From positions 146,253-210,252 of the forward strand of contig ONFF01000003.1 in NCBI GenBank assembly GCA_900317055.1: a stretch of 64,000 nucleotides of DNA, given 5' to 3'. The notes beneath the pieces are model-generated. The model saw only the letters and a program-made list of their open reading frames with translations. It was not told the DNA's origin and made no database searches. The DNA is from an uncultured Bacteroidales bacterium. GTDB lineage: Bacteria; Bacteroidota; Bacteroidia; Bacteroidales; F082. This document shows positions 5,700-33,684 of the stretch, piece by piece (the first letter of the stretch is position 1; the number at the start of each line of letters is the position of its first letter). The translations under genes were made by a program, and so were the position numbers.

Positions 5700-5744
5700 T
5701 GACATGCGCCCGTGCGTCTCTACATCCGCAATATCAATTTAAAT

Positions 5745-18979: not shown

Positions 18980-19213
18980 ATGAATATTGATCAATTTGTG
19001 TCTGATTTTGCCGAGTGTTTTGATGACACAGAGGCAGAAGTGTTTACTCCTACCTTGAAGTTCAAGGAATTGGAGGAATGGAGCTCGCTGCAAGGATTAG
19101 CTATCATTGCAATGTGTAGAAAAAGCTATGGCATCAGAATCAGTGGCGCCGAAATTCAAGAGGCTGACACGATTCAGGATGTGTATGCTCTCGTTTCGGA
19201 AAAACTGGGATAA
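18980..19213 (+). CDS. Acyl carrier protein
   Basis: A 77-residue acidic protein with the four-helix ACP pattern. The usual DSL phosphopantetheine site is here EWSSLQGL, so Ser36 is the likely attachment point and the preceding Asp is replaced by Ser. Helix 2 (LQGLAIIAMCRKSYGI) and the end ADTIQDVYALVSEKL are typical. Its stop overlaps the start of the KAS III gene (TAATG). It is a dedicated, not housekeeping, ACP: the general fatty-acid genes are not here. It should hold the acyl chain made or moved by the next enzymes. Confidence 0.88.
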   Translation: MNIDQFVSDFAECFDDTEAEVFTPTLKFKELEEWSSLQGLAIIAMCRKSYGIRISGAEIQEADTIQDVYALVSEKLG

Positions 19214-20211
19214 TGGCAGCTTATATTAAGGCAATATCTTATTATTTGCCCGAAACGATTTTGTCCAACCAAATTCTGGTTGAGGAATTTCCCGAGTGGT
19301 CGGTAGAAAAAATCGCAAAGAAAGTGGGCGTGGTCAACAGACATGTCGTAAAAAACGACGAATGTGCATCTGATTTGGCTCAACATGCCGCATTGTCTTT
19401 GTTTGACGAGTGGAATATCGACAAAAGCTGCATAGACTTTGTCTTGCTGTGTACCCAAAGTCCCGATTATTTCCTTCCGACCACTGCCTGTTTGCTTCAG
19501 CGTCATCTAGGATTGAGAACATCTTGTGGTGCTTTGGACTTCAATTTGGGTTGTTCGGGTTTTGTTTACGGATTGGCATTGGCAAAAGGTTTGGTTGAAA
19601 GTGATACTGCCAACAATGTTTTGCTTTTAACGGCGGAGACGTATTCAAAGTACATTCATGAACGAGACAAGGGTAACCGTACGATTTTCGGAGATGCAGC
19701 GACGGCTACATTGGTATCTGCGGATGGATTTGCCGAGATTGGCAGCTTTGAATTGGGGACCGATGGTAATGGCGCCGACAATCTAATAGTAAGGTCCGGT
19801 GCGATGCGACATCCTGATCGATTTGAAGACATTGCATTTGACAAATCTGGGAATCCAGTTTCTTCAGATCATTTGTATATGAATGGTTCGGAAATATTTA
19901 ATTTTACTCTGGATACAGTTCCATCCGTCGTCGACAATGTGCTTGCGAAGAATGGGGTAAGACAAGATGATGTCAGCCTCTATGTATTCCATCAAGCCAA
20001 CAAGTATATGTTGGATTGTTTGTTTGATTTGATGGAGATAGACGAACACAAAGCCTATTTCTACATGTCGGAGGTGGGTAATACGGTATCGTCAACAATT
20101 CCAATTGCTCTAGTGGAGGCGCGAAAAGAAGGAAGGCTTAGGGGCAATGTGGTTGTTGCAGGGTTCGGCGTTGGTTATTCTTGGGGAGGGTGCATTCTAA
20201 AATGTAAATAA
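19213..20211 (+). CDS. 3-oxoacyl-ACP synthase III-like (FabH/KAS III family)
   Basis: A 332-residue thiolase-fold condensing enzyme with a full catalytic triad: Cys114 (FNLGCSGFVYG), His260 (VFHQANKYML) and Asn290 (SEVGNTVSST). FabH condenses an acyl-CoA starter with malonyl-ACP, while relatives in secondary pathways transfer or condense other acyl groups. Its place between an ACP and an MBOAT in a glycan operon points to making a short, special 3-oxo or hydroxy acyl group, not general lipid synthesis. It overlaps the ACP gene by one base and the MBOAT start follows its stop directly. Confidence 0.9.
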   Translation: MAAYIKAISYYLPETILSNQILVEEFPEWSVEKIAKKVGVVNRHVVKNDECASDLAQHAALSLFDEWNIDKSCIDFVLLCTQSPDYFLPTTACLLQRHLGLRTSCGALDFNLGCSGFVYGLALAKGLVESDTANNVLLLTAETYSKYIHERDKGNRTIFGDAATATLVSADGFAEIGSFELGTDGNGADNLIVRSGAMRHPDRFEDIAFDKSGNPVSSDHLYMNGSEIFNFTLDTVPSVVDNVLAKNGVRQDDVSLYVFHQANKYMLDCLFDLMEIDEHKAYFYMSEVGNTVSSTIPIALVEARKEGRLRGNVVVAGFGVGYSWGGCILKCK

Positions 20212-21651
20212 ATGCTGTTCAATTCTATAGAGTTCGCCGTTTTCCTTCCGATTGTGTTTTTGCTCTACTGGTTCGTATTTGCCAAGAACCTGAAGATTCA
20301 AAACCTGTTTATCGTCATTGCCTCATATGTCTTCTACGGCTGGTGGGATTGGCGGTTTCTTTTCTTGATGGCTTTTACTTCAATCTGTAGTTGGGGTAGT
20401 GGCTTGTTGATTGAAAAATTTAAGTCAACACCCAAGAAAGCAAAAGCTGTAAGTGTCTTGAATATTGTAATCAATCTGCTGGTTCTTGGCATTTTCAAAT
20501 ACTATGACTTTTTTGTCGGGTCGTTTGCTGATTTGTTTCTCGGAGGTAAAAAAGATGGGTTGTTGCTTAACATCATCCTTCCCGTAGGAATCAGTTTTTA
20601 TACTTTTCAGGCTTTAAGTTATAGTATTGACATATATAGAGGGAAAATGAAGCCGACGAGGGATGTTATACAATTCTTTGCTTTCGTTAGCTTCTTTCCA
20701 CAATTGGTGGCGGGTCCCATTGAGCGGGCGACAAACCTGCTGCCCCAATTTGCAAAGCAGAGGAAGTTTGATTACGATTTGGCAGTTGATGGCATGAGAC
20801 AGATACTATGGGGTCTGTTCAAGAAGATGGTGGTGGCTGACAATTGTGCTGTATATGTGGATAAGGTGTTCCCAAATTTCGCCTCGCAAACTGGAAGTAC
20901 TTTGGCATTGGGCATAGTCCTGTTTGCCGTCCAATTGTATTGTGATTTCTCTGGCTATTCAGACATTGCCATTGGCACATCTAAATTGTTTGGCATCAGA
21001 TTGATGCGGAACTTCAACAATCCCTATTTTGCCACTTCTTTTGCAGACTATTGGAAACGCAATCACATCTCGTTGACCACATGGTTTATGGACTATGTGT
21101 ATTATCCGATGATTGGCATCAGCGATAAGCTGGCATATTGGAATTTCTGTATGATAGCTACATTCCTGCTCAGCGGATTATGGCATGGTGCAGGGTGGAC
21201 ATTTGTCCTATGGGGCCTATATCAAGGTGTGTTTATTGTAATATCTATGAATTCGGCTAAGGGAAGAAAGCGTTTTGAAAAGGAACACGGCTTGAAGAAT
21301 AACAAGTTATACGAATGGGCTTCACGAATTGTAACATTCTTGATAATTTGCATTGGTTTGATTCTTTTTAGGGCCGAAAGCCTCTCGCAGGCATGGGGCT
21401 ATTTTTGTGGTATTTTCAGGAGTGGCCTCTTCTCCATCCCATGGCTTGACTCCAGGTCCTATTACATACCGGTTCTATTGAGCATCGCGGTGCTTTTTGT
21501 AGTCGAATGGCTGCAACGAAACAATGAGCATGCGTTTGATTTGCGCAGTGTCAAGAGTCATGTCGTTAAGTTCGGCATCTACTATTTGATGATTGCCGTT
21601 CTCTTTTGGTTTGGTGGGCATGCCGAGAGCTTTATTTATTTTCAGTTTTGA
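20212..21651 (+). CDS. MBOAT-family O-acyltransferase (AlgI/DltB-like)
   Basis: A 479-residue protein with about eleven membrane helices. FNSIEFAVFLPIVFLLYW at the start, GISFYTFQALSYSIDIYRG, FFPQLVAGPIERA and the catalytic His325 in LSGLWHGAGWTFVLWG are the AlgI/DltB signature. These proteins move acyl groups across or at the membrane onto extracytoplasmic sugars. The acyl donor is likely the ACP encoded two genes upstream. It starts immediately after the KAS III stop, so the three genes are one translational unit. The SGNH protein that follows would be the AlgJ/AlgX/DltD-type partner. Confidence 0.92.
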   Translation: MLFNSIEFAVFLPIVFLLYWFVFAKNLKIQNLFIVIASYVFYGWWDWRFLFLMAFTSICSWGSGLLIEKFKSTPKKAKAVSVLNIVINLLVLGIFKYYDFFVGSFADLFLGGKKDGLLLNIILPVGISFYTFQALSYSIDIYRGKMKPTRDVIQFFAFVSFFPQLVAGPIERATNLLPQFAKQRKFDYDLAVDGMRQILWGLFKKMVVADNCAVYVDKVFPNFASQTGSTLALGIVLFAVQLYCDFSGYSDIAIGTSKLFGIRLMRNFNNPYFATSFADYWKRNHISLTTWFMDYVYYPMIGISDKLAYWNFCMIATFLLSGLWHGAGWTFVLWGLYQGVFIVISMNSAKGRKRFEKEHGLKNNKLYEWASRIVTFLIICIGLILFRAESLSQAWGYFCGIFRSGLFSIPWLDSRSYYIPVLLSIAVLFVVEWLQRNNEHAFDLRSVKSHVVKFGIYYLMIAVLFWFGGHAESFIYFQF

Positions 21652-21657
21652 GGTGTT

Positions 21658-22611
21658 ATGAAGAAATTCTTGATACGGTTTTGCATTTGGATGGCGATTG
21701 CCCTTGCTTTGGCATTGTTGGCGGATATGATGGTAACTAATGGATTGAGTAAGACCGATGTGAGGAAATATACGGTTTGGAACGATATTTATAAGGGCGA
21801 AATCAATGCTGATTTGGTTGTGCTAGGCAATTCTCAGGCATGGTGTAGCTATAATACCTACATATTGGATTCACTATTGGACTGTAATTCCTATAATCTT
21901 GGAATGGACGGTCATTCCCTGCACTTTCAGCTGATTCGTTATGAAACTTATAGACGTTTTAACCCCGCCCCCCAAATCATAATTCTCAATACCTGTTTTT
22001 TCGGCACATTTTATATAATGGCTGACAAGCAATATGAAAGGGATCAGTTTTTCCCTTATGTTACTGATGCCACTTTGATGGCAGCTGTGGCTGAAACGAA
22101 ACATATAACATGGCTTGACAAATATGTCCCTCTTTATAGGTATTTCGGCTATCGTGATGATGTTGAAATGGGAATGGCTTCTTTTTTTGGACAGACAGAT
22201 TTTCAGGATGGAGGCTTCCATAAAGGTTATAGAGGAAATGACTATCCTTGGGAGACGATAAAAATGTCAGCCGATAGCTTGTTGCATAGTACTATTGATA
22301 TGAAATTGGCGGATGAGTTGGAGAAATTCGCTGAGGAGTGTTGCAAGGAGGATACCAAATTGGTTTTTGTAAAATATCCAATGTGTTATCCAATTGTGGA
22401 GAGGGTGAGTAATTTAAATGTAAGTGATTCTATTATTGAAACGATTGCAGATAGGTATAGTATTCCTGTTCTGGATTATTACTACTCCGACATTACAAAA
22501 GACACCACCAACTATTATAATTTTGGCCATTTGAACAAGAAAGGCTCAAAATTGTTTACCAATGATTTGTGCCTTGATTTGGATTCGTTAGGTATCTTTA
22601 AAGGTATATAA
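21658..22611 (+). CDS. Membrane-anchored SGNH-fold protein, AlgJ/DltD-like partner of MBOAT
   Basis: A 317-residue protein with one N-terminal membrane helix (about 6-26) and an otherwise soluble outer part. LVVLGNSQAWCSYNTY (Ser in GNSQAW) is the block-I Ser of SGNH hydrolases, and NFGHLNKKGSKLFTNDL near the end has the block-V type His (usual D-x-x-H replaced by F-G-H, preceded by YYN). In alginate and teichoic acid systems a protein of this fold completes transfer of the acyl group received through MBOAT. Sequence is divergent, so the fold call rests on the two motifs and the context. Confidence 0.72.
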   Translation: MKKFLIRFCIWMAIALALALLADMMVTNGLSKTDVRKYTVWNDIYKGEINADLVVLGNSQAWCSYNTYILDSLLDCNSYNLGMDGHSLHFQLIRYETYRRFNPAPQIIILNTCFFGTFYIMADKQYERDQFFPYVTDATLMAAVAETKHITWLDKYVPLYRYFGYRDDVEMGMASFFGQTDFQDGGFHKGYRGNDYPWETIKMSADSLLHSTIDMKLADELEKFAEECCKEDTKLVFVKYPMCYPIVERVSNLNVSDSIIETIADRYSIPVLDYYYSDITKDTTNYYNFGHLNKKGSKLFTNDLCLDLDSLGIFKGI

Positions 22612-23548: not shown

Positions 23549-24211
23549 ATGAGTATAAATAATAAAATATTGAAATTCAAAAGGTTCGTTAAGAAATTTG
23601 ATGTTCCTAAAACTTTATATTGGCGTGCAAAACTCCGATTAAGCAGGGCAGCCTCTTTCCATATTTGTCCCAAATCAATTGTATCTATTGATAAGGGAGC
23701 AAATGTGACCATCAAATCGGGCGAATTGGTCATCAACGACTCTTGGTTTGCAACGAGGAAGCGACATTATGTCTCCGAGTTCAGGCTCGACAAGGACAGT
23801 GTTTTCGAGTGTGAAGGGGACTTTAGGTTGTTTCAGGGAGCCTCAATCTATGTGGCTCCTGGTGCCAGACTTGTAGTGCATGGAGGTGGAACAGTCTTCA
23901 ACACCAATGCCACATTGAATTGCTTTCATCGTATCGAGATAGGCAAAGGTTGTGCCATATCCGATAATGTTTGTATCGCCGATTCCGATTCTCATTGCAT
24001 CGATGGCCATAAAGATAAAGTGATGGCACCAATTATCATTGGAGACCATGTTTGGATTGGCAAGAATGTTACAGTGTTGAAAGGTGTTTCCATAGGAAGT
24101 GGTGCCGTCATAGGCGCTGGCTCGGTTGTAACGAAGGATGTGCCAAGTAATACTGTGGTGGCAGGCAATCCAGCCAAACCTATTAAAACGATTGAAAAAT
24201 GGAATTGGTAG
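23549..24211 (+). CDS. Hexapeptide-repeat O-acetyltransferase (LbH acyltransferase)
   Basis: A 220-residue protein. Its second half shows left-handed beta-helix turns (IEIGKGCAISDNVCI, PIIIGDHVWIGKNVTVLKGV, IGSGAVIGAGSVVTKDVPSN) and the closing VVAGNPAKPIKTI of the maltose/galactoside O-acetyltransferase group. The His of IADSDSHCI is the likely catalytic base. It should move an acetyl group from acetyl-CoA to a sugar hydroxyl in the cytoplasm. It overlaps the next gene by 13 bases, implying coupling. Confidence 0.87.
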   Translation: MSINNKILKFKRFVKKFDVPKTLYWRAKLRLSRAASFHICPKSIVSIDKGANVTIKSGELVINDSWFATRKRHYVSEFRLDKDSVFECEGDFRLFQGASIYVAPGARLVVHGGGTVFNTNATLNCFHRIEIGKGCAISDNVCIADSDSHCIDGHKDKVMAPIIIGDHVWIGKNVTVLKGVSIGSGAVIGAGSVVTKDVPSNTVVAGNPAKPIKTIEKWNW

Positions 24212-25104
24212 TTTTTCAAACTCCTATCCTTGTTATCGCTTTTAACCGGCCACGCCACACGCGTCGGGTTTTGGAGGCCATTATGGCTGTTCGCCCACAA
24301 GACCTTTATGTCTTTCAAGACGGTGCGCGCGAAGGTAATGAAGCAGACCGGATAAAATGTGAAGAGGTGAGGCAGGTAGTGAATGAACTCATCAACGGAA
24401 CGCAAGTTCGGTTGCACACGAATTACTCTGAAGTGAACCTGGGTTGCGGGCCGGGGCCGTATGAAGCCATGTCGTGGTTTTTTAGGAATGTAGAAAAAGG
24501 CATTGTCTTGGAGGATGACATTGTTCCACACCCATTGTTCTTCTCTTATATGGACGATCTCCTTGAACGTTACAAAAACAATGATTCTGTCGGGATGGTG
24601 ACAGCCCATAATCTCCAACGCCACTATTCAAGACGGAATTCCTATTATTTCACATTTGAAATGGCTGGGACATTGGGATGGGGTACCTGGCGAAGAGTGT
24701 GGGAAAAATTTGATTTTGATATCCCATATAATGGAGCTTTGCTTGATGAGGCGTTAAGAAGTTATGGGATTCCCAAGCTTTGTAGAAAGAAGATGTTGCT
24801 AAACTTTAAAAAGTGGCTGTCGGGTACTAGGCATGATTGTTGGGACTATCAGTTCGATTATTACCTGTTGGTTAATCGGTTTCTAAACGCTCGTTCCAAT
24901 TCTTGCCTTACTTCCCACGAAGATGATGGTGAAGAGGGTACTCATTCAGGCTACTCTAATCCTGGTTATAGGATGGAAGTCAACACCTCGTTGTTTCAAC
25001 CCATTACCCATCCTAAATCAGTGAAAGTGGATAGTTCCGTAAAATGGAGAATGTGGAAAAAAGAGGCGCATCGCCTTGTTAAAAAACTACTGAAACGTGA
25101 TTAG
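24199..25104 (+). CDS. Glycosyltransferase, GNT-I-like/GT-A fold
   Basis: A 301-residue protein starting inside the end of the acetyltransferase gene. PILVIAFNRPRHTRRVLEAI and VFQDGAREG open the nucleotide-binding fold, and GIVLEDDIVPHPLFF carries an EDD metal motif like GNT-I-type glycosyltransferases. TLGWGTWRRVWEKFDFD is a block seen in many bacterial proteins of this group. It probably transfers GlcNAc or a related sugar. The gene overlaps the following dehydratase gene by 8 bases and so links the glycosyltransferases to the deoxysugar operon. Confidence 0.82.
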   Translation: MELVVFQTPILVIAFNRPRHTRRVLEAIMAVRPQDLYVFQDGAREGNEADRIKCEEVRQVVNELINGTQVRLHTNYSEVNLGCGPGPYEAMSWFFRNVEKGIVLEDDIVPHPLFFSYMDDLLERYKNNDSVGMVTAHNLQRHYSRRNSYYFTFEMAGTLGWGTWRRVWEKFDFDIPYNGALLDEALRSYGIPKLCRKKMLLNFKKWLSGTRHDCWDYQFDYYLLVNRFLNARSNSCLTSHEDDGEEGTHSGYSNPGYRMEVNTSLFQPITHPKSVKVDSSVKWRMWKKEAHRLVKKLLKRD

Positions 25105-26467
25105 TTCATTGTTATCTGTTGATGGAAGATGGGCTTCCTTGGATTCAATCGTGTCATGGATTGAAACGAGGAACAGGGAAGTCTCAGTGTCGGTAGACCT
25201 TATTCCATTCAAGGCTATGGACAATTGGGAAGTGCTTTCCGATAATAGTTTGCGCCATTCTAGTGGGAAGTTTTTCTCCATTGAAGGAATTCGGGTCAAT
25301 ACAGATTTTCCACAGCCAAAAGTATGGGAACAGCCCATCATTAATCAACCTGAAATAGGCTATTTGGGCATTTTGGCTAAAGAATTTGATGGTGTTCTTC
25401 ATTTTCTAATGCAGGCAAAGATAGAGCCTGGCAATGTAAACAATGTTCAATTGTCACCGACACTACAGGCTACTAAGAGCAATTATACGCGGGTGCATGG
25501 CGGTAAAAAAGCAGCATACCTCGAGTATTTCCATAATGCCAAATCTAGCCAGATCATTCTTGACCAATTGCAATCCGAGCAAGGTGCCCGCTTCATGAGG
25601 AAGCGAAACCGAAATATGATTGTCAAAGTGGAAGAAGATATTCCCCTTTTGGAGGATTTTCGTTGGATGACCTTGGGCCAGATCAAAGAATTGATGCAGC
25701 GTGACAATTGTGTGAACATGGATACCAGAACGGTATTGGCGGGGATTGATTTTGCAGAATATTTGGTCTCTGAGGCCGATTTGTCAGAAATGTCTGGTTT
25801 TGGTCGTGCCATGTACGAATCAGCTACGGCTTTATCTGGAGTGAAAACCTTACGAGAGGTTCTTTCGTGGCTCACCAACTTAAAGTCAAGATATGACCTC
25901 TCCGTTGAAAGGGTTCCTTTGAATCAGATCAAAGAATGGGAGTGTAGAGACGATGAGATTGTGCGTTATGATAAAAAGTACTTTCGAGTGCTTGGTGTAA
26001 GAGTCCATATTGCGAACAGGGAAGTGGTGTCGTGGTGCCAACCCTTGGTTCAACCCATGCAACAAGGAATATGTGCTTTTATTATCAAAAAGATTGGTGG
26101 CATTTATCATTTTTTGGTTCAAGCCAAGTTGGAATGTGGAAACAGGGATGTTTTTGAACTAGCGCCCACAGTTCAATGCCTTACAGGAAGTATCTTTAAT
26201 GGTGCTCCGCGTCCTCCTTACACAGACTATGTGTTAAATGCAAAGAAAGAACAGATAATCTATGATGCGTTGCAAAGTGAAGAAGGCGGACGATTCTATC
26301 ACGAACAAAACCGCAACATGATTGTCGTCGCTGATGACGATTTCCCAATGGATTTGCCGCATACCTACCAGTGGATGACTCTTGGGCAAATCAATGAGTT
26401 TATGAGATATAGTAATTATATTAACATTCAGGCGCGAAGCCTGATCGCTGCATTAAAATACAAATGA
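25097..26467 (+). CDS. NDP-hexose 2,3-dehydratase (TylX3/EvaA/SpnO family)
   Basis: A 456-residue protein made of two homologous halves, as is normal for PF03559. Half 1 ends RWMTLGQIKELMQRDNCVN (about 190-208) and half 2 ends QWMTLGQINEFMRYSNYIN (about 425-443); each also has a Q-x-x-x-E-x-G...QLSPT / ELAPT block. Family members remove the 2-OH from NDP-4-keto-6-deoxy-glucose, the first step towards 2,6-dideoxysugars, and are known mainly from antibiotic pathways. The GTG start at 25097 overlaps the upstream gene. The next genes supply the expected reductase and aminotransferase. The 4,6-dehydratase that makes its substrate is not in the window. Confidence 0.9.
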   Translation: MISSLLSVDGRWASLDSIVSWIETRNREVSVSVDLIPFKAMDNWEVLSDNSLRHSSGKFFSIEGIRVNTDFPQPKVWEQPIINQPEIGYLGILAKEFDGVLHFLMQAKIEPGNVNNVQLSPTLQATKSNYTRVHGGKKAAYLEYFHNAKSSQIILDQLQSEQGARFMRKRNRNMIVKVEEDIPLLEDFRWMTLGQIKELMQRDNCVNMDTRTVLAGIDFAEYLVSEADLSEMSGFGRAMYESATALSGVKTLREVLSWLTNLKSRYDLSVERVPLNQIKEWECRDDEIVRYDKKYFRVLGVRVHIANREVVSWCQPLVQPMQQGICAFIIKKIGGIYHFLVQAKLECGNRDVFELAPTVQCLTGSIFNGAPRPPYTDYVLNAKKEQIIYDALQSEEGGRFYHEQNRNMIVVADDDFPMDLPHTYQWMTLGQINEFMRYSNYINIQARSLIAALKYK

Positions 26468-27477
26468 TAAGAATAGGTGTTATTTGTCCTTCGGAGATTG
26501 CTTCTCGCCGGTTTCTGCCTGCTTTGAAGCAAAGCGGATTATTCAAGTTTGCAGGAGTTGCGGTTGCTGACCGAACTGAATTTGAGGGCGCTTCGGATGA
26601 GGTGCTTTCAAAAGAGATTGAAAAAGCAAAAGCGATTCAGACAGAGTATGGTGGCGAGATTTTTGATGGTTATCATACTTTGATTGAGTCTGGTGTTGTT
26701 GATGCGGTCTATTTGCCCCTGCCTCCAGCATTGCATTTTCATTGGGCCTATAGGGTTTTACAGGAAGGTAAGCATGCACTTGTTGAAAAGCCTTGCACCA
26801 CCTTGCTTAAGAATACAGAAAGTCTTGTCGCTTTGGCAAAGGAAAAACAGTTGGCCTTGCATGAAAACTACATGTTTACTTTTCATCGTCAAATGGAACA
26901 GGTGCGTGAAATTGTTGATTCTGGTCAACTCGGTGAGGTGAGGCTGTATCGCATTGATTTTGGGTTTCCCATGAGGGCAAAAACTGATTTTCGGTATAAT
27001 AAAGCATTGGGTGGGGGCGCACTATTGGATTGTGCTGGATACACTCTGCGTTGCGCTTCATTTTTCCTGGGGCAAAAAGCCCAAGTGGTTAGTGCCGCAA
27101 AACAAAGTGTTAAAGGATTTGAGGTGGATATGTTTGGTTCGGCAACAATGCGTAATGAAGAAGGCTTGACTGCGCAATTGGCCTGGGGAATGGACAATAA
27201 TTATCGATGCAGTCTTGATATTTGGGGCAGCAAGGGAACCTTGCATACAGACCGAATCATGACGGCACCTGTGGGATTTGTTCCTCATGCCACCATCAAA
27301 CTTGGTAACGACGAACCAATTACTTTGACGCTCGATGCGGATGACGCTTTCAAAAAATCCATAGAGCATTTTTACTGTTGCATACAGTCTGATCAAATGA
27401 GATTGGCGAATTATGAACAAATATGCCGTCAGGCAGAATTGATTGATCAATTTAATAAACTTGCTGATGATGAATAA
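26464..27477 (+). CDS. Gfo/Idh/MocA-family oxidoreductase, probable NDP-hexose 3-ketoreductase
   Basis: A 337-residue NAD(P)-dependent enzyme. The Rossmann start IRIGVICPSEIASRRFLPAL, then VDAVYLPLPPALHF and HALVEKPCTTLLKN (the EKP motif with catalytic-type Lys), and GGGALLDCAGYTLR later, are family marks and fit the KijD10/SpnN-like 3-ketoreductase branch. After the 2,3-dehydratase makes a 3,4-diketo sugar, this enzyme would reduce C3 to give NDP-4-keto-2,6-dideoxyglucose. ATGA overlap with the dehydratase stop supports the pairing. A WbpB-like dehydrogenase role is an alternative. Confidence 0.84.
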   Translation: MIRIGVICPSEIASRRFLPALKQSGLFKFAGVAVADRTEFEGASDEVLSKEIEKAKAIQTEYGGEIFDGYHTLIESGVVDAVYLPLPPALHFHWAYRVLQEGKHALVEKPCTTLLKNTESLVALAKEKQLALHENYMFTFHRQMEQVREIVDSGQLGEVRLYRIDFGFPMRAKTDFRYNKALGGGALLDCAGYTLRCASFFLGQKAQVVSAAKQSVKGFEVDMFGSATMRNEEGLTAQLAWGMDNNYRCSLDIWGSKGTLHTDRIMTAPVGFVPHATIKLGNDEPITLTLDADDAFKKSIEHFYCCIQSDQMRLANYEQICRQAELIDQFNKLADDE

Positions 27478-28561
27478 ACCCATCTATGTTACCATGCCAA
27501 CCCTTGCACCGCAGGCCGAAGTTGACGAATTGCTCAAAGGTGTTTGGGAGAGTGGCATTATGACTCATAACGGGCCTTTGGTGCAGCGCTTTGAAAAAGA
27601 AGTTGCTGAGTATTTGAATGTTCCTCGTATGGTGGCTTGCACCAATGGCACTCTTGCTTTGCAAGTAGCTATCAAAGCACTTGGTTTGCAGGGAGAGATT
27701 ATCACTACGCCTTTTACATTCATTGCCACCGTCTCTTCCATTATGTGGGAGCATTGTACTCCTGTTTTTGTGGATATTGACCCTGAGACTCTCAATATCG
27801 ACCCTTCAAAGATAGAAGAGAGGATAACATGTCATACAGTAGCCATCATGCCCGTTCATGTGTTTGGCAACAGTTGTGATATAGATGAAATTAATGCCAT
27901 TGCGGCTAAGCACGGCTTGAAAGTGATTTATGACGCATGTCATTCTTTTGGCGTGAAGTATAAGGGGAAGTCTGTCTTCACTTATGGCGACATCGCTGTG
28001 ACGAGTTTCCATGCCACCAAAATGCTGAACACGGCGGAAGGAGGGGGCTGTTTCACTCAAAACAAGGAACTGGACGAAAAAATGCGTCGCATTCGTTTTT
28101 TTGGATTTGAAAACCACGCTGATATCGTTGAAGATGGCTTTAACGGAAAAATGACGGAAGTCAACGCCGCTGTAGGCATTGCTAATTTGAAGTATATGGA
28201 CGCTGCATTATCTGATCGCAAAAAGAAGTATATGCTTTATAAGGAGATTCTGCAAAGTAGTGGCGATTTGCGATTCCAAAAAATCGAAGATGATTCTTGC
28301 AATTACAGCTATTTCCCCGTGGTGTTTCCGGATGAAGAGACAACGCTGCGCGTTATGGCACACTTGCAAGCCAATCAGATATTCCCGCGCAGGTATTTTT
28401 ATCCTTCCGTGAATACTTTCACCAAGATTGTTCCATACTTGCCCATGCCAAAATCCGAGGATGTCGCAAGCCGCATTCTCTGTTTGCCGCTATACAAGGA
28501 TTTAAGAATTCAAGAGGTGGAGGAAATTGCGGAGGTTACATTAAGGACAATACAGTTGTAA
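27470..28561 (+). CDS. DegT/DnrJ/EryC1 aminotransferase, VioA-like
   Basis: A 363-residue PLP enzyme. I take ATG 27470 (MNKPIYVTMP); ATG 27467 is the alternative, and both overlap the previous stop. CTNGTLALQVAIKALGL holds the phosphate-binding motif, Asp155 lies in VIYDACHSFG and the Schiff-base lysine is Lys184 in SFHATKMLNTAEGG. The SFHATK-x-LNTAEGG form is that of 4-aminotransferases such as VioA (Qui4N). On the product of the two preceding enzymes it would give NDP-4-amino-2,4,6-trideoxyhexose. Position of amination is inferred from subfamily and context. Confidence 0.87.
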   Translation: MNKPIYVTMPTLAPQAEVDELLKGVWESGIMTHNGPLVQRFEKEVAEYLNVPRMVACTNGTLALQVAIKALGLQGEIITTPFTFIATVSSIMWEHCTPVFVDIDPETLNIDPSKIEERITCHTVAIMPVHVFGNSCDIDEINAIAAKHGLKVIYDACHSFGVKYKGKSVFTYGDIAVTSFHATKMLNTAEGGGCFTQNKELDEKMRRIRFFGFENHADIVEDGFNGKMTEVNAAVGIANLKYMDAALSDRKKKYMLYKEILQSSGDLRFQKIEDDSCNYSYFPVVFPDEETTLRVMAHLQANQIFPRRYFYPSVNTFTKIVPYLPMPKSEDVASRILCLPLYKDLRIQEVEEIAEVTLRTIQL

Positions 28562-28562
28562 G

Positions 28563-29759
28563 ATGAAGAAGTTATTGATATTAGGTGGTGATCATTTCAC
28601 CATCCCAGTAGTGGAGGCAGCACATAAGCAAGGCTATTATGTAATTACCTGTGATTATTTGCCCAATAATGTCGCGCATAAGTATTCTGATGCATTTATT
28701 AATTATAGCACGATTGACAAAGAAGGGATTTTAGCATGGGCTCGTAAAAATCCTATTGATGGAATCCTTACATTTACTGACTCAGGAGTAATAACAACAG
28801 CATATGTGCAGCATTATCTTGGTTTACCTCAGATAGGTCCTTTAGAATCAGTTGAGATATTGCAAAATAAGGCTCGCTTCCGTCGTTTTCTTGCTGATAA
28901 TGGTTTTAAAGTGCCAAAGGCAAAAGGTTATGCATCGCTTGAAGATGCCATTAATGATGCTGGGTGCTTTAAATGGCCAATAATGGTAAAGCCTGTTGAT
29001 TCTGCGGGGAGCAAAGGAGTGTCAAAAATAGAAAAATTGGAACAGCTAAAAGAAGCTGTTGACTTTGCTTTAAATTTCTCTATCTCGAAAGAGTTTATTA
29101 TAGAAGAGTTTATTGAAAAAGATGGTTGCTCGTCTGATAGTGATTGCTTTTCAGTTGATGGCCGTTTTAAGTTTATATCTTTTTCTGCCCAACGATTTGA
29201 TGAAAACTCCATGGGTATATATACTCCTGCTGCCTATTCATGGCCTGCGACCATGACAAGTCAAGCGCAGAAAGAGCTATCTGAAGAATTGCAGCGCCTC
29301 ATTAGCTTGTTGGGTATGAAGACTACCATTTATAATATAGAGACCCGTGTCGGTGCAGATGGGAATCCATACATTATGGAAGTTACACCTCGTGGTGGAG
29401 GTAACCGACTGGCCGAGATGCTTCGGTATGCAACAGGTGTTGATATGATTACTGCGGCAGTTCGTGCTGCGGTTGGTGACCCTGTTGTTGGGGTGGAACA
29501 AAAGCCTTTGGTTGGCCATTGGGCAGAAATCATTGTCCATGCCGACAAGACAGGTGTTCTTGACAATATTGAGATTTTACCCATGGTAGAACCATTTGTG
29601 AGAGAAAAAGATTTCTGGTTCAAAAAAGGCGATGCCGTCAAAGAATTTCAGTCGGCAAGGGATGCGATAGGCACGTTGGTATTACAATTCCCATCAGCAG
29701 AAAAGTTGGAATACGCCATTACTCATCAAAGTGAATGGCTTAAGGTAAGAGTGAGATAA
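28563..29759 (+). CDS. ATP-grasp ligase, probable N-acylation of the amino sugar
   Basis: A 398-residue protein of the carbamoyl-phosphate-synthase/biotin-carboxylase-like ATP-grasp group. It starts with KKLLILGGDHFTIPVVEAA, binds ATP through PIMVKPVDSAGSKGVSKI (about 139-156) and FIIEEFIEKDG, and has the metal-binding YIMEVTPRGGGN (about 271-282). Such enzymes join a carboxylate, activated as acyl phosphate, to an amine or thiol. In this operon it may link an amino or hydroxy acid to the sugar's new amino group. Start ATG lies one base after the aminotransferase stop; its own stop overlaps the next start. Confidence 0.84.
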   Translation: MKKLLILGGDHFTIPVVEAAHKQGYYVITCDYLPNNVAHKYSDAFINYSTIDKEGILAWARKNPIDGILTFTDSGVITTAYVQHYLGLPQIGPLESVEILQNKARFRRFLADNGFKVPKAKGYASLEDAINDAGCFKWPIMVKPVDSAGSKGVSKIEKLEQLKEAVDFALNFSISKEFIIEEFIEKDGCSSDSDCFSVDGRFKFISFSAQRFDENSMGIYTPAAYSWPATMTSQAQKELSEELQRLISLLGMKTTIYNIETRVGADGNPYIMEVTPRGGGNRLAEMLRYATGVDMITAAVRAAVGDPVVGVEQKPLVGHWAEIIVHADKTGVLDNIEILPMVEPFVREKDFWFKKGDAVKEFQSARDAIGTLVLQFPSAEKLEYAITHQSEWLKVRVR

Positions 29760-30730
29760 TGGAAGCCATAGGTGGATACTTTGAATTGGCTGACCTAGTT
29801 GAAGGTGGACAGTTTCCCCATGGCAATGGAGTGCTACTGAACACCGGCCGCAATGCATTGGAGTATATTCTGAGGAGCATTGGCGATGTGAAAAGTGTCT
29901 ATCTGCCGTATTACACTTGTGAGGTGGTGCTTGAGCCATTAAAGAAACTCAATATACCTTGGTCTTTCTACCATATCAACACCAGTTTCGAAATTGCAGA
30001 TGAAATCAATCTAGGAGAAAGGGAATACATCATTGCCAACAATTATTTTGGCATCAAGGATTCCTACATTGAGAAGTTAGCCAAACGATACGGCTGCCAG
30101 CTTATTGTGGATTGTTCGCAAGCTTTCTTTTCTAAACCTCTATCAAGGATAAATTCGTTCTACAGTATGAGGAAATTTGTAGGAGTTGCTGACGGAGGGG
30201 TGGCATATTTGGGAAACTTGCCGCAAGGACTTATTGATGTAAAAGAGGAGGAACGCACAAGTGAGCACGACAGCCATTTATTAAAACGTAAGCGATTAGG
30301 GGCGGAATCAGGTTTTGCTTTTTTTCAGGCTAACGAAAAGAAATTGAATAATCAACCTATTCGCAATATGTCGTTTAAAACAAAATGGATACTCGACCAT
30401 ATTGATTATGATGAAGTTGTTGAACGGCGTGTGGAAAATTTCAAGTGCTTACATAATGCTTTAAATAAAGAGAATTACTTGACTTTGCCTAATTGTGATG
30501 CTTTCAAGTGTCCAATGATATATCCTTTTATGACAAGTATAGGTTGTAGCCTTCGTAAAAAGCTTATAGACAGTAAGGTATTTGTTGCAAGGTATTGGCC
30601 AAATGTGGAGCAACGGGATGGGTTTGAAACTGAATATGATCTGTCATTGAATGTAATTGCAATTCCTTGTGATCAAAGATATGGGATTGAAGAAATGAAT
30701 AGAATAATCGATTTAATACGAACAATATGA
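29759..30730 (+). CDS. Divergent DegT/fold-I PLP-dependent aminotransferase-like protein
   Basis: A 323-residue protein, shorter than usual for DegT enzymes. LLNTGRNALEYILRSI (about 27-42) replaces the SGT-A-L phosphate motif with N-T-G-R-N-A-L, QLIVDCSQAFF (about 116-126) has the PLP-ring Asp, and YSMRKFVGVADGGVAYL contains the candidate Schiff-base lysine. These marks fit a minor DegT branch seen in glycan loci. It may make the amino acid or another amino sugar used by the neighbouring ATP-grasp ligase. Its end overlaps the next gene by ATGA. Function is inferred only. Confidence 0.7.
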   Translation: MEAIGGYFELADLVEGGQFPHGNGVLLNTGRNALEYILRSIGDVKSVYLPYYTCEVVLEPLKKLNIPWSFYHINTSFEIADEINLGEREYIIANNYFGIKDSYIEKLAKRYGCQLIVDCSQAFFSKPLSRINSFYSMRKFVGVADGGVAYLGNLPQGLIDVKEEERTSEHDSHLLKRKRLGAESGFAFFQANEKKLNNQPIRNMSFKTKWILDHIDYDEVVERRVENFKCLHNALNKENYLTLPNCDAFKCPMIYPFMTSIGCSLRKKLIDSKVFVARYWPNVEQRDGFETEYDLSLNVIAIPCDQRYGIEEMNRIIDLIRTI

Positions 30731-31398
30731 AAATTATATTAATAGGTGGCCGTGGCACTGCAATAGTTGTTGCTGACCAAATGAATGATGCTCACCAAAG
30801 GTTTGGTATGGATATCGAGGTTCTTGGACTAGCACTGGATGATCATTCAGGGGGCGATGATGTTTCAGGGTACCCGATTCTTTGCGATATAAAAGATGTT
30901 TATGAAAAGTATAAGGTGTACGATGACGTGAAATTTGTTTATCAGTTGTATCGTCCGGATATCTTAAGGGAAAGAACTAAGCTGCTTTATGATTTGAATA
31001 TTCCAGTTGAAAAATTCGCTACATTTATCCATCCATCTGTGATGGTGGCAAAATCAGCAAAGATAGGTTACGGGAATGTGTTTCTAGCTAATGTGGTGAT
31101 AAATTGTAATGCCGTTATTGGCAATTTTAATACAGTTAATTCTGGTGCGTTGCTTGGCCACGACATTACAATAGGTAATAACAATTATTTTGCAGGGCAG
31201 GTTTGTGTTGGTAGTGGTTTGCAAATTGGCAATATGAATTTTATCGGGTTGAATTCATCTATTCGTAATGGAATAACAATAGGAGATGGCAATGTTATTG
31301 GTATGGCATCTAATGTTACAAAGGATGTTTCAAACGACAATGTACTTTATGGCAACCCTGCTATTATTAAACCTAAGTTAAACCATGTGATAAGATAA
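30727..31398 (+). CDS. PglD/NeuD-type sugar N- or O-acyltransferase
   Basis: A 223-residue two-domain protein. Residues 1-90 form a small Rossmann-like sugar-binding domain (KIILIGGRGTAIVVAD), and 95-215 a left-handed beta-helix (HPSVMVAKSAKIGYGN, VINCNAVIGNFNTVNSGALLGHD), with the acceptor-side His in LLGHDITIG. This is the PglD/NeuD architecture that acylates 4-amino sugars or sialic-acid-like sugars using an acyl-CoA. It stands directly before the MaoC and CitE-like genes, so the acyl-CoA may come from those. The acyl group is unknown. Confidence 0.85.
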   Translation: MKIILIGGRGTAIVVADQMNDAHQRFGMDIEVLGLALDDHSGGDDVSGYPILCDIKDVYEKYKVYDDVKFVYQLYRPDILRERTKLLYDLNIPVEKFATFIHPSVMVAKSAKIGYGNVFLANVVINCNAVIGNFNTVNSGALLGHDITIGNNNYFAGQVCVGSGLQIGNMNFIGLNSSIRNGITIGDGNVIGMASNVTKDVSNDNVLYGNPAIIKPKLNHVIR

Positions 31399-31401
31399 AA
31401 C

Positions 31402-31860
31402 ATGAATCAATCGGTTTTAGGATTATACTTTGAAGAGTTTGAAGTAGGCTCTGAAATAAAGCATGCACTTTCAAAGACTATTTTCGAGAGCGACAACAAC
31501 CTTTTTAGCCTGATGACAATGAACTATCATCCGGTCCATACCAATGTGGATTATGCAAGCAAAAACCAGCATGGCCAGATTTTGGTTGTTGGTACATTGG
31601 TGTTCTCATTGGTGGTGGGAATGACGGTACCTGATATCAGCGGCAAGGCTATAGCAAATCTTGGTTATGAGGATGTGAGGCACTTGGCTCCAACCTTCAT
31701 TGGAGACACCTTGTATGCTCGTACTCGTGTTATTTCGAAAAGAGAATCGGCTTCTAAGCCTGATAGGGGCATCGTGTATGTTGAGACCATTGGGTACAAC
31801 CAACGTGGTGAAGATGTCATCTCATTTAGACGTAATGTCTTAATCAAAAAGAAGGGCTGA
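31402..31860 (+). CDS. MaoC-family hydratase/dehydratase
   Basis: A 152-residue single hot-dog-fold protein. The (R)-enoyl-CoA hydratase motif D-x4-H is here N41-x4-H46 (MNYHPVHTNVDYA). Asn in place of the catalytic Asp is, as far as I recall, common in the mesaconyl-CoA/methylmalyl-CoA dehydratase branch. Such enzymes add or remove water on acyl-CoA thioesters. A HpcH/HpaI (CitE-like) lyase gene follows 4 bases later; the same pair makes malyl- and methylmalyl-type CoA esters in other pathways. It probably prepares the acyl group attached to the glycan. Confidence 0.8.
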   Translation: MNQSVLGLYFEEFEVGSEIKHALSKTIFESDNNLFSLMTMNYHPVHTNVDYASKNQHGQILVVGTLVFSLVVGMTVPDISGKAIANLGYEDVRHLAPTFIGDTLYARTRVISKRESASKPDRGIVYVETIGYNQRGEDVISFRRNVLIKKKG

Positions 31861-31864
31861 TACT

Positions 31865-32749
31865 ATGAGAACTGATTTTTTGACAAGAAGCCTCATGTTT
31901 GTGCCGGCGCACAATGATAGGCTGATGCAAAGTGCATCACGCAGTAATGCAGACATACTTCTTCTCGACATAGAAGATAGTGTTCAGCCAATCGAAAACA
32001 AACAAGTTGCTCGTGACAAGATTATTCAATATGTACGAGAGGGGCTTTTTAAGGATCGAATCCTTTTCCCTCGTATTAACGACCGAGAAAGTGGCCAGTT
32101 GCTGAAGGATGTTTATCAATTGGCCGTTGAGGGAGTGACTGGATTTATGTATCCCAAAGCTAGATGTGGTGAGGATGTGTATTTCATCGGAAAGTTGCTT
32201 GAGACTATTGAATATGATAAAGGATTTGAACCTGGTACATTTAAACTTATCCCTTTAATAGAAACGACTGGGGCCGTGATGAACATCCAAGACATTTGCA
32301 AGGCTAGTCCTCGTGTGGTCGCTGTCGCATTTGGTTGTGAAGACTATGTGGCAGATCTTAAAGGTATGCATGACAAAGAGGGACAGAGCATCTTTTTTGC
32401 CCGTAATATGATAGTAAACGGAGCCCATAATTGTGGAGTTGCCGCAATTGATACTGTACATATTCGCGTTCATGACCTTGAAGATTTGGAGAATAACCTC
32501 ATTCTTTCCAAAAAACTTGGGTTTGATGGAATGCTGGTTTTGAACCCGAAGGAGTTGCCTTTGTGTCACCACTATTATTCTCCTTCTCTTGAAGAAGTTG
32601 CATGGGCCGAAGAGATGATTGCGCTAAGTGAGAATGCTGTAATGAAAGGGAAAGGCGTGGAGGTCGTTGACAACAAGTTTATAGGCCCACCTATGCTTAA
32701 GATGGCAAAGGAAATTTTGACAAAGGCAAAGATGTGTTTTAAAAATTGA
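31865..32749 (+). CDS. HpcH/HpaI aldolase, CitE/malyl-CoA lyase-like
   Basis: A 294-residue TIM-barrel enzyme. RSLMFVPAHNDRLMQSA and LLLDIEDSV (about 32-40) are the CitE opening; Arg70 in FPRIND binds the acyl carboxylate, Glu133 in LIETTGAV and Asp160 in FGCEDYVADL bind Mg2+. Members split or join acetyl-CoA (or propionyl-CoA) with glyoxylate to give malyl-CoA, or act as thioesterases on them. No citrate lyase alpha or gamma genes are nearby, so citrate lyase is unlikely. With MaoC and the PglD-like transferase it suggests a hydroxy-dicarboxylic acyl decoration such as malyl. Confidence 0.86.
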   Translation: MRTDFLTRSLMFVPAHNDRLMQSASRSNADILLLDIEDSVQPIENKQVARDKIIQYVREGLFKDRILFPRINDRESGQLLKDVYQLAVEGVTGFMYPKARCGEDVYFIGKLLETIEYDKGFEPGTFKLIPLIETTGAVMNIQDICKASPRVVAVAFGCEDYVADLKGMHDKEGQSIFFARNMIVNGAHNCGVAAIDTVHIRVHDLEDLENNLILSKKLGFDGMLVLNPKELPLCHHYYSPSLEEVAWAEEMIALSENAVMKGKGVEVVDNKFIGPPMLKMAKEILTKAKMCFKN

Positions 32750-32793
32750 ATTGTCTAAAAGCTGTTTGTTCAACTTTTTTTGACTTAGCTATA

Positions 32794-33684
32794 ATGGAAA
32801 AGGTTCTTGTTAGCATTCGTTGTTTGGCATATAATCATGCGTCATATATTCGCCAGTGTTTGGATGGTTTCGTGATGCAAAAAACCAGTTTTTGTTTCGA
32901 GGCTATTGTTCATGATGATGCATCAACGGATGGAACGGCTGCTATCATTAGAGAATATGCTGAAAAATACCCCAATATCATCAAGCCTATTTTTGAAACC
33001 GAAAACCAATACTCAAAACATGATGGTTCTTTGCGAGATATTATGAATGCAGCTTGCAAAGGCAAATATATTGCCATGTGTGAGGGCGATGATTATTGGA
33101 TTGATCCTTACAAGCTCCAGAAACAGGTTGATTTTATGGAACAGCATCCCGATTATGTCGCTTGTTTCCATAATGCAAGGGTGCAGTATAATAATCATGT
33201 TGCGCTGTTTAATAATTTGGAAGAAAAGCATCATACTCCTACCGAAGATATTATCAAACGCCGTTGGTTCATTGCCACACCTTCGCTTTTGTATCGTAAC
33301 ATTGTTCTTGAAATGCCTGAGTGGAGTAAAGAAGTCGTCAATGGAGATTATATGATGGAATTGTTGCTTGCAAAAGAAGGCAAGTTCTATTACATGGATG
33401 ATGTGATGGCTGTTTATAGACAAGACGGTCAAGGTATGTCTTCTGTGCTTAAAAGGGATAAGGTGAATATGATAGATAGGCTGATTGATTTGCTGGAAAA
33501 GATGAAGCTTTATTACGGCGATGAATATGCTCCTGCGTTTGACAAATCTATTAGGAATTATCAAACCATCCGAGATGATTATGAAAAAGAAGCCTATTTT
33601 GAACAGCATCCAATAGCAAGGTTTTTCAGGCCAAAAACATACAAGCGGATGATAAAGAAGAAGCTTAGAAGTATTGTCCAATGA
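32794..33684 (+). CDS. Glycosyltransferase family 2
   Basis: A 296-residue GT-A enzyme. I start at ATG 32794 (MEKVLVSIRCLAYNHASYI) because the residues in frame upstream are not family-like. AIVHDDASTDGTAAII and MCEGDDYWIDPYKLQKQVDFM (read as MCEGDDYW, then PYKLQKQVDFM) are the standard blocks, with the metal-binding Asp pair in EGDDYW. It follows the CitE-like gene after 44 bases and overlaps the next glycosyltransferase by ATGA. It should add a sugar to the chain; donor unknown. Confidence 0.87.
   Translation: MEKVLVSIRCLAYNHASYIRQCLDGFVMQKTSFCFEAIVHDDASTDGTAAIIREYAEKYPNIIKPIFETENQYSKHDGSLRDIMNAACKGKYIAMCEGDDYWIDPYKLQKQVDFMEQHPDYVACFHNARVQYNNHVALFNNLEEKHHTPTEDIIKRRWFIATPSLLYRNIVLEMPEWSKEVVNGDYMMELLLAKEGKFYYMDDVMAVYRQDGQGMSSVLKRDKVNMIDRLIDLLEKMKLYYGDEYAPAFDKSIRNYQTIRDDYEKEAYFEQHPIARFFRPKTYKRMIKKKLRSIVQ

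What the first reader, a model, noticed from the sequence alone, without database searches (positions are those of the whole stretch)
25097..32749. Operon predicted to make an N-acylated 4-amino-2,4,6-trideoxyhexose with its own acyl-CoA enzymes
Eight overlapping or touching genes encode a 2,3-dehydratase, a Gfo/Idh reductase, a VioA-like aminotransferase, an ATP-grasp ligase, a second PLP enzyme, a PglD-like acyltransferase, a MaoC hydratase and a CitE-like lyase. The first three match the route known for early D-forosamine-type antibiotic sugars (SpnO, SpnN, SpnR), giving a 4-amino-2,4,6-trideoxyhexose. The last five would make and attach an acyl group, possibly a malyl or methylmalyl-type one. 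I know of no described surface-glycan system with this full set. The gene calls are seen in sequence; the pathway is inference.
Basis: partly seen in the sequence, partly recalled or inferred. Interest (0 to 1): 0.85.

Follow-up and report, generated by a model that had tools for sequence, protein, structure and literature searches.

The report
Mix-and-match acylated deoxy-amino-sugar operon
A Bacteroidales bacterium carries genes that appear to build an antibiotic-style 2-deoxy amino sugar for its surface coat and to hang an unusual acyl group on it, and related bacteria keep the same sugar core while swapping the acyl-making genes.

Summary
The eight genes are real, co-directional and nearly touching (gaps -8 to +4 bases), inside a larger polysaccharide-type locus. 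The first three form a conserved core: EvaA-type NDP-hexose 2,3-dehydratase, Gfo/Idh 3-ketoreductase, VioA-like aminotransferase. Of 79 related dehydratase loci, 43 have this aminotransferase class; a dehydrogenase-like protein occurs in 0 of those 43 but 19 of the other 36, which supports action at C-4. Predicted product: dTDP-4-amino-2,4,6-trideoxyhexose. After the core comes an exchangeable acylation slot: 22 of 38 aminotransferase loci versus 2 of 26 others carry an acylation-type gene there (window-derived queries). The window joins two separately recurring cassettes: ATP-grasp + a diverged PLP enzyme, and PglD + MaoC + CitE. In 15 of 15 loci with this MaoC type, a neighbouring CitE-like protein has Gly or Ser for the catalytic lid Asp; 22 of 22 control CitE-like proteins keep Asp. 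So the sugar prediction is well supported; the acyl chemistry (malyl from a normal lyase) is not, and 'one eight-gene system' is better read as 'core plus two cassettes'. One other fetched locus (L129) has core plus PglD/MaoC/CitE; none has all eight.

The parts
25097..26467 (+). NDP-hexose 2,3-dehydratase (EvaA/SpnO type)
   Evidence: PF03559 1.2e-158; EvaA 4j7g 1.8e-116; E110 and E161 = EvaA E139/E190, invariant in 80 of 80 aligned, window included
26464..27477 (+). Gfo/Idh-family NDP-sugar 3-ketoreductase
   Evidence: best solved match Sugar 3-ketoreductase 3rbv, 3.9e-58; K109 and Y193 kept; tree groups it with dehydratase-linked Gfo proteins
27470..28561 (+). VioA-like sugar aminotransferase (DegT/DnrJ), predicted C-4
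   Evidence: PF01041; best solved match 2po3, DesI; one of 42 dehydratase-linked enzymes on one side of a branch, next to VioA-type
28563..29759 (+). ATP-grasp ligase, predicted amide ligase for the 4-amino group
   Evidence: ATP-grasp_4, LAL_C2 below cut-off; best solved matches 4dim (2.2e-19) and L-amino acid ligase 3vot (7.3e-18); follows a VioA-like AT in 7 of 7 relatives
29759..30730 (+). diverged fold-type-I PLP enzyme of the sugar-aminotransferase fold
   Evidence: no Pfam/NCBIfam hit and no meaningful PDB sequence hit; AlphaFold2 + Foldseek; invariant D118, R138-K139
30727..31398 (+). NeuD/PglD/VioB-like hexapeptide N-acyltransferase
   Evidence: TIGR03570 137.9 bits, cut-off 160.8; perosamine N-acetyltransferase 4ea7 and VioB 7txp
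31402..31860 (+). MaoC-type hydratase/dehydratase, nearest RipB and mesaconyl-CoA hydratase models
   Evidence: NF038241 7.5e-44, below cut-off; MaoC hits; relatives of at least 58% in 14 other loci
31865..32749 (+). CitE-like TIM-barrel protein lacking the catalytic lid Asp (Gly274)
   Evidence: PF03328; the aligned position is Asp in the five solved relatives shown of 16 matched and in 22 of 22 controls
24199..25104 (+). overlapping upstream gene, probable glycosyltransferase (weak GNT-I-like match)
   Evidence: PF03071 3.8e-4, below its cut-off; overlaps 25097
32746..33684 (+). overlapping downstream ORF, GT2-like by reading the sequence (TTG start; an ATG lies further in)
   Evidence: ORF; no family search run on it

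Best explanation
The first three genes convert dTDP-4-keto-6-deoxyglucose (RmlA/RmlB encoded elsewhere in the genome) into dTDP-4-amino-2,4,6-trideoxyhexose: the 2,3-dehydratase removes O-2, the Gfo/Idh enzyme reduces C-3, the VioA-like enzyme aminates C-4. The amino group is then N-acylated by exchangeable cassettes. The ATP-grasp enzyme, helped by the diverged PLP enzyme, probably forms the first amide with an amino acid or other carboxylate. The PglD-like enzyme adds an acyl group from a CoA thioester prepared by MaoC and the CitE-like protein, either as a second layer on the aminoacyl group or on another amino sugar of the same glycan. The CitE-like protein is probably not a normal lyase. 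The sugar goes into a surface polysaccharide. Shown: genes, conservation, active-site residues, phylogeny, co-occurrence. Inferred: substrates, products, order of acylation, identity of the acyl group, use in the glycan. My rough odds: core sugar 0.8; N-acylated at N-4 0.75; both cassettes acting on this same sugar 0.45.
For: Catalytic residues kept. The aminotransferase group (42 rows, SH-aLRT 97) lies next to VioA plus the ATP-grasp-linked aminotransferases. A PF01370 dehydrogenase-like protein occurs near the dehydratase in 0 of 43 AT loci but 19 of 36 non-AT loci (Fisher 9.7e-9; contig-edge loci removed 0 of 38 versus 16 of 26, 1.1e-8). Acylation-type genes follow in 22 of 38 AT loci versus 2 of 26 with window-derived queries (Fisher 4.9e-5), 30 of 38 versus 3 of 26 with a wider set (1.0e-7). 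AT/ATP-grasp/PLP triple in 7 of 7 relatives with PLP of at least 44%. MaoC next to a G/S-lid CitE in 15 of 15 loci, a clear PglD-like gene within three genes in 12 of 15. Five-gene order repeated in L106; core + PglD/CitE/MaoC/CitE in L129. RmlA and RmlB in own genome. An N-acyl-aminoacyl group on Qui4N is described (PMC3210612 passages).
Against: No chemistry was measured. The window is the only fetched locus with both cassettes and the core, so their joint action rests on adjacency in one genome. All dehydratase-locus comparisons use the best 80 of 302 relatives, which favours loci like this one, and loci share ancestry. The dehydrogenase-like queries (4 proteins) were taken from non-AT loci; 17 of the 36 non-AT loci lack that protein (7 of those 17 at contig edges) and 5 of the 36 have another aminotransferase. 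In the wider acylation count several query proteins (a hexapeptide pair, a second ATP-grasp, WbqC, the Glu-lid CitE) came from AT loci; even so 8 of 38 AT loci show none. The aminotransferase tree is a quick one with flagged long branches and no named C-3 enzyme; WecE and ArnB, also annotated for C-4, lie apart from VioA. Gfo/Idh proteins of AT loci fall in several groups, so C-3 configuration may differ. Gene 5's model match has high rmsd.
Confidence: 0.6

Rival explanations
1. Two different sugars: the core plus ATP-grasp/PLP make one N-substituted 4-amino-2,4,6-trideoxyhexose, while PglD/MaoC/CitE acylate another amino sugar of the same glycan.
For: 13 of the 15 loci with this MaoC type show no 2,3-dehydratase in the gene maps; four have FdtA-type genes near it (L096, L099, L224, L225), three of these with RmlA, i.e. 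probably 3-amino sugars. The window has a second DegT aminotransferase and a hexapeptide protein at 5142-6875.
Against: In the window the cassette is part of the run of near-touching genes right behind the core, and L129 independently places PglD/CitE/MaoC/CitE from the second gene behind the same core.
Confidence: 0.25
2. The aminotransferase acts at C-3 on the diketo product (as EvaB-type enzymes do, recalled) and the Gfo/Idh enzyme reduces C-4, giving a 3-amino-2,3,6-trideoxyhexose.
For: That order is known for antibiotic sugars (recalled). Other loci (L091, L092, L094, L122, L140, L151) have the order DH-AT-Gfo with a different aminotransferase. No named C-3 aminotransferase was in my tree to exclude it by grouping.
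Against: Those other aminotransferases are 29-32% identical to the window's and lie elsewhere in the tree, near WecE; the window enzyme is nearest DesI and VioA, and in many loci a dehydrogenase-like protein is found instead of it after DH-Gfo.
Confidence: 0.1
3. One reading: MaoC and a working CitE-type lyase run in reverse make malyl-, methylmalyl- or citramalyl-CoA, which PglD attaches.
For: Nearest named relatives are RipB/mesaconyl-CoA hydratase and CitE/RipC/malyl-CoA lyase; Mg-binding Glu/Asp and the substrate Arg are kept; N-malyl groups occur on marine bacterial glycans (PMC3210612 passages).
Against: The lid Asp proposed for proton transfer is Gly in the window and Gly or Ser in 18 of 18 of this subfamily; PMC3832036 (passages) reports it conserved across the superfamily except for Glu in the malyl-CoA thioesterase cluster.
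Confidence: 0.2

Closest known systems
TDP-D-forosamine early pathway (SpnO, SpnN, SpnR; enzyme roles recalled) and other antibiotic 2-deoxysugar routes (EvaA, OleV etc.)
   Same: 2,3-dehydratase + Gfo/Idh 3-ketoreductase + DegT aminotransferase logic; the DH-Gfo gene pair is also adjacent in two of the three actinomycete plasmid regions read, L187 and L188, not in L186
   Different: Here in a polysaccharide-type locus, no 3-dehydratase among the eight genes, and followed by acylation-type genes
VioA/VioB route to N-acylated dTDP-Qui4N (recalled)
   Same: VioA-like aminotransferase and a PglD/VioB-type acyltransferase
   Different: Sugar is predicted to be 2-deoxygenated first; ATP-grasp, PLP and MaoC/CitE genes added
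RipB-RipC itaconate degradation and Mcd/Mcl pathways
   Same: MaoC + CitE-like pair
   Different: CitE lid Asp replaced, neighbours are glycan-type genes, no CoA-transferase among the eight genes; both below the curated cut-offs
Acylated amino sugars of marine and fish-associated bacteria (e.g. Qui4N with N-[(R)-3-hydroxybutyryl]-L-alanyl; 2-hydroxyglutaryl in Flexibacter maritimus), PMC3210612 passages
   Same: 4-amino-6-deoxysugars carrying hydroxyacyl or acyl-aminoacyl groups
   Different: In the passages read, the 4-amino sugars keep an oxygen or nitrogen at C-2

Membership tests
EvaA-type NDP-hexose 2,3-dehydratase | PF03559 domains (two stretches) and the Glu139/Glu190 of EvaA | tested here: met
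Gfo/Idh NDP-sugar 3-ketoreductase (I recall the name KijD10) | best match to the solved sugar 3-ketoreductase, with the Lys and Tyr altered in its variants | tested here: met
VioA-type sugar aminotransferase | groups with a VioA-annotated enzyme rather than with WecE, ArnB or FdtA-locus aminotransferases | tested here: met
   quick tree; one VioA-annotated reference, no named C-3 enzyme included
VioA-type sugar aminotransferase | amination of the 4-keto group | not testable with these tools
   needs enzyme assay; genomic support only
DesI (TIGR04427) | curated cut-off 650 bits | tested here: not met
   262.5 bits
TDP-forosamine pathway | SpnQ-type 3-dehydratase and N-methyltransferase after the core (recalled) | tested here: not met
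   no methyltransferase and only one DegT-family hit among the eight proteins; genome not searched for them
NeuD/PglD/VioB N-acyltransferase (TIGR03570) | score above curated cut-off 160.8 | tested here: inconclusive
   137.9 bits, near full-length match
CitE-like C-C lyase superfamily | Mg-binding Glu/Asp and substrate Arg | tested here: met
CitE-like C-C lyase superfamily | catalytic lid Asp (Asp299 of Rhodobacter malyl-CoA lyase) | tested here: not met
   Gly in window; importance from PMC3832036 passages
Itaconate degradation RipB/RipC | NCBIfam equivalog cut-offs | tested here: not met
   149.7 of 340 and 112.9 of 375 bits
Citrate lyase beta subunit CitE (TIGR01588) | curated cut-off 443.4 bits | tested here: not met
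   181.6 bits
L-amino acid ligase-like ATP-grasp | forms an amide on the 4-amino sugar | not testable with these tools
   family match only

The most novel reading that the evidence does not exclude
PglD + MaoC + lid-Asp-less CitE (in 6 of 15 loci with a second CitE-like protein that has Glu at that site) is an undescribed acyl-CoA-building cassette of Bacteroidota surface glycans, in which a CitE-fold enzyme has left C-C lysis for a new reaction; in the window it decorates a 2-deoxy-4-amino sugar of a kind tied so far to antibiotics.
Probability: 0.35. Interest if true: 0.78.

Novelty: new variant of a known kind. Interest (0 to 1): 0.62.

Why it matters
In the passages I saw, a 2022 review (PMC8987622) describes 2,3-dehydratases from antibiotic pathways. 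Here the same enzyme logic appears in polysaccharide-type loci of Bacteroidota and some other phyla, including the named strain Bacteroides cellulosilyticus DSM 14838 (L163), predicting a class of 4-amino-2,4,6-trideoxy surface sugars with interchangeable acyl groups, and a CitE subfamily whose chemistry is open. Both are directly testable.

Tried and rejected
C-3 amination was considered and disfavoured by the nearest relatives of the aminotransferase and the AT/dehydrogenase exchange. WbpE-type identity for gene 3 was not favoured: the solved WbpE scored 155.7 bits against 203.1 for DesI. A single fixed eight-gene system was rejected: of 173 family genomes only the window's own has both the dehydratase and a CitE of at least 81% identity, and the parts recur separately. 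Treating the CitE change as an alignment slip was rejected: five solved relatives and 22 of 22 controls align Asp there; the controls are 22 of the 23 loci fetched for the best-scoring distant CitE hits (L072 gave no usable ORF). In the first, smaller CitE alignment one of the 12 glycan proteins departed at the Arg position and one at an Asp position (the call does not say which); in the larger one the Arg aligned in all 25 non-control proteins. Gene 5 could not be given a reaction. Literature searches for a described system with this core in a surface glycan (listings only, plus passages of PMC8987622, PMC7725333 and PMC3210612) showed none that I recognised by title and abstract start; searches used spaced phrases that may miss comma-written names, only open-licence papers are held, and the library is not the whole literature. 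(dehydratase in 3 of 395 phylum genomes, own included) shows the trait is rare in that sample.
Full report
Observation. Pfam and NCBIfam give the families listed in the parts table. Gene 5 has no Pfam or NCBIfam match and only two chance-level PDB sequence matches; its AlphaFold2 model from 13 sequences (mean pLDDT 81.7, pTM 0.85) matches DegT-type sugar aminotransferases in Foldseek (TM about 0.6 but rmsd 8-11 Angstrom, so a diverged relative at best), and Asp118 and Arg138-Lys139 are invariant. Neighbouring ORFs overlap the block on both sides. The window holds an ABC transporter ATPase with a Wzt C-terminal domain at 14426-15721 and, by reading, several glycosyltransferase-like genes, so I take this as a stretch of a surface-polysaccharide locus.

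The core. The dehydratase matches EvaA over its length. The two Glu residues whose mutation PMC8987622 (passages) reports as abolishing EvaA activity are E110 and E161 here and are invariant in the 80 dehydratases aligned, window included. The Gfo/Idh protein's best solved match is a sugar 3-ketoreductase (3rbv; I recall the name KijD10), and the residues altered in its variants 3rcb and 3rc7 are present as K109 and Y193. The aminotransferase is closest to DesI among solved structures by sequence, scores best but below cut-off on the DesI model, and is 42% identical to a VioA-annotated plasmid protein (unnamed DegT proteins scored higher, up to 47%).

Spread. A scan of one genome per species gave 302 dehydratase relatives, of which the best 80 were kept: mostly Bacteroidota, with some Pseudomonadota, Myxococcota, Kiritimatiellota, Nitrospirota and others; named hosts include Bacteroides timonensis (L110), B. 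cellulosilyticus DSM 14838 (L163) and Hoylesella timonensis (L166). By genome the dehydratase is uncommon: 11 of 173 family genomes and 3 of 395 drawn from the phylum, own included in both. In 79 of the 80 loci my ORF caller found the dehydratase (L173 missed). Of these, 43 have an aminotransferase of at least 50% identity to the window's close by, 42 of them with a Gfo protein too; 36 do not, five of which have another aminotransferase.

C-4 argument. A quick tree of 64 aminotransferases puts the window enzyme among 42 dehydratase-linked enzymes on one side of a branch (SH-aLRT 97), with VioA plus the seven ATP-grasp-linked aminotransferases as the neighbouring group (99). Several long branches are flagged, one of the 42 is an extreme one, and no named C-3 enzyme was included, so the tree shows kinship to VioA, not regiochemistry. 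In loci without this aminotransferase a NAD-dependent epimerase/dehydratase-family protein (PF01370 for the one tested) lies near the dehydratase in 19 of 36, against 0 of 43 with it (Fisher 9.7e-9; 16 of 26 versus 0 of 38 without contig-edge loci). The four query proteins came from non-AT loci. The simplest reading is that after 2-deoxygenation and C-3 reduction the 4-keto group is either reduced or aminated. Loci share ancestry, so the p-values overstate independence. A third arrangement, DH-AT-Gfo with a different aminotransferase, also exists.

Acylation slot. With queries taken from the window alone (ATP-grasp, gene 5, PglD, MaoC, CitE, KAS III), a hit lies in the five genes after the core in 22 of 38 non-edge AT loci and 2 of 26 non-AT loci (Fisher 4.9e-5). 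Adding two more hexapeptide proteins, a second ATP-grasp, WbqC and the Glu-lid CitE, all taken from AT loci, gives 30 of 38 and 3 of 26 (1.0e-7). Types in the wider count: PglD-like 14, ATP-grasp 8 plus 3 of another kind, KAS III 6, other hexapeptide 6, WbqC 5, gene-5-like 3, MaoC/CitE 1; eight AT loci show none. L106 repeats the first five window genes in order. L129 has dehydratase, Gfo, aminotransferase, LUD-domain protein, PglD-like, CitE-like, MaoC, CitE-like, then ketopantoate hydroxymethyltransferase and BKACE-family genes.

Cassette one. Gene-5 homologues of at least 44% identity occur in 8 of 149 family genomes including the window's; nine more genomes have distant ones. The seven others in the close set all have the order aminotransferase, ATP-grasp, gene 5, and none of those seven genomes is among the 11 with the dehydratase. 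So ATP-grasp and gene 5 go with a VioA-type aminotransferase, with or without 2-deoxygenation, which fits work on the 4-amino group. ATP-grasp relatives in the PDB include L-amino acid ligases, after a better match named phosphoribosylglycinamide synthetase.

Cassette two. MaoC of at least 58% identity was collected in 15 loci: the window, six found through CitE, L129 found through the dehydratase, and seven found by a phylum search with MaoC (8 of 395 genomes at 62% or more, own included). In 15 of 15 a CitE-like protein stands beside it whose lid residue is Gly or Ser (17 Gly and 1 Ser among 18 such proteins); six loci carry a further CitE-like protein with Glu there. A clear PglD-like gene is within three genes in 12 of 15; L100, L101 and L219 have only weak hexapeptide matches. 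Mg-site Glu/Asp and the substrate Arg are kept. The 22 control CitE-like proteins from the same family of genomes keep Asp (22 of 23 loci fetched, themselves the best-scoring part's distant hits), as does the one MaoC/CitE pair seen away from glycan-type genes (L226), and so do the five solved relatives shown. PMC3832036 (passages) gives this Asp a proton-transfer role and reports it conserved except for Glu in the malyl-CoA thioesterase cluster. Four of the 15 loci also carry FdtA-type genes (L096, L099, L224, L225), suggesting 3-amino sugars as other acceptors.

Reading. The window is core plus two cassettes. dTDP-4-keto-6-deoxyglucose should be available from RmlA (67% to E. coli RffH) and RmlB (52% to RffG) elsewhere in the genome. 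A two-layer substituent, aminoacyl then acyl, would use all eight genes and has structural precedent on Qui4N (PMC3210612 passages); the alternative is that cassette two serves another sugar. What the CitE-like protein does without its lid Asp is the main open question.

Limits. Everything is sequence and structure prediction. The compared loci were chosen by similarity. No result identifies the acyl group, the C-3 or C-5 configuration, or the final glycan.

Noticed in passing
window 18980-22611: Small ORF of ACP size, KAS III-like, MBOAT-like and an SGNH/DltD-like gene in a row: looks like a separate O-acylation system of the same locus (names by reading; only 21658-22611 was sent to Pfam, with no hit).
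   Followed up: no
window 5142-6875: A second hexapeptide protein and DegT aminotransferase pair near the start of the locus; that aminotransferase lies apart from gene 3 in the tree.
   Followed up: partly
window 45723-45811: Six-base tandem repeat (14.8 copies) encoding a Gly-Tyr run near the end of a Wzc-like protein (name by reading), followed by a His run.
   Followed up: no
window 58079-64000: Open reading frame of at least 1974 aa for a large secreted-looking protein, running off the window.
   Followed up: no
L091, L092, L094, L122, L140, L151: Third dehydratase arrangement, DH-AT-Gfo, with aminotransferases that group near WecE rather than VioA.
   Followed up: partly
L112, L156: Gene-5-like PLP protein next to a WbqC-like gene, suggesting WbqC and ATP-grasp as alternative partners, though L112 has both.
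   Followed up: partly
L219, L220, L221, L223, L225, L129: Second CitE-like protein with Glu at the lid site, as reported for malyl-CoA thioesterases, beside the Gly/Ser one.
   Followed up: partly
L183: Burkholderia glumae plasmid pBGF3: VioA-annotated gene followed by KAS III, ACP and, further on, an SDR gene, perhaps another amino-sugar acyl cassette.
   Followed up: no
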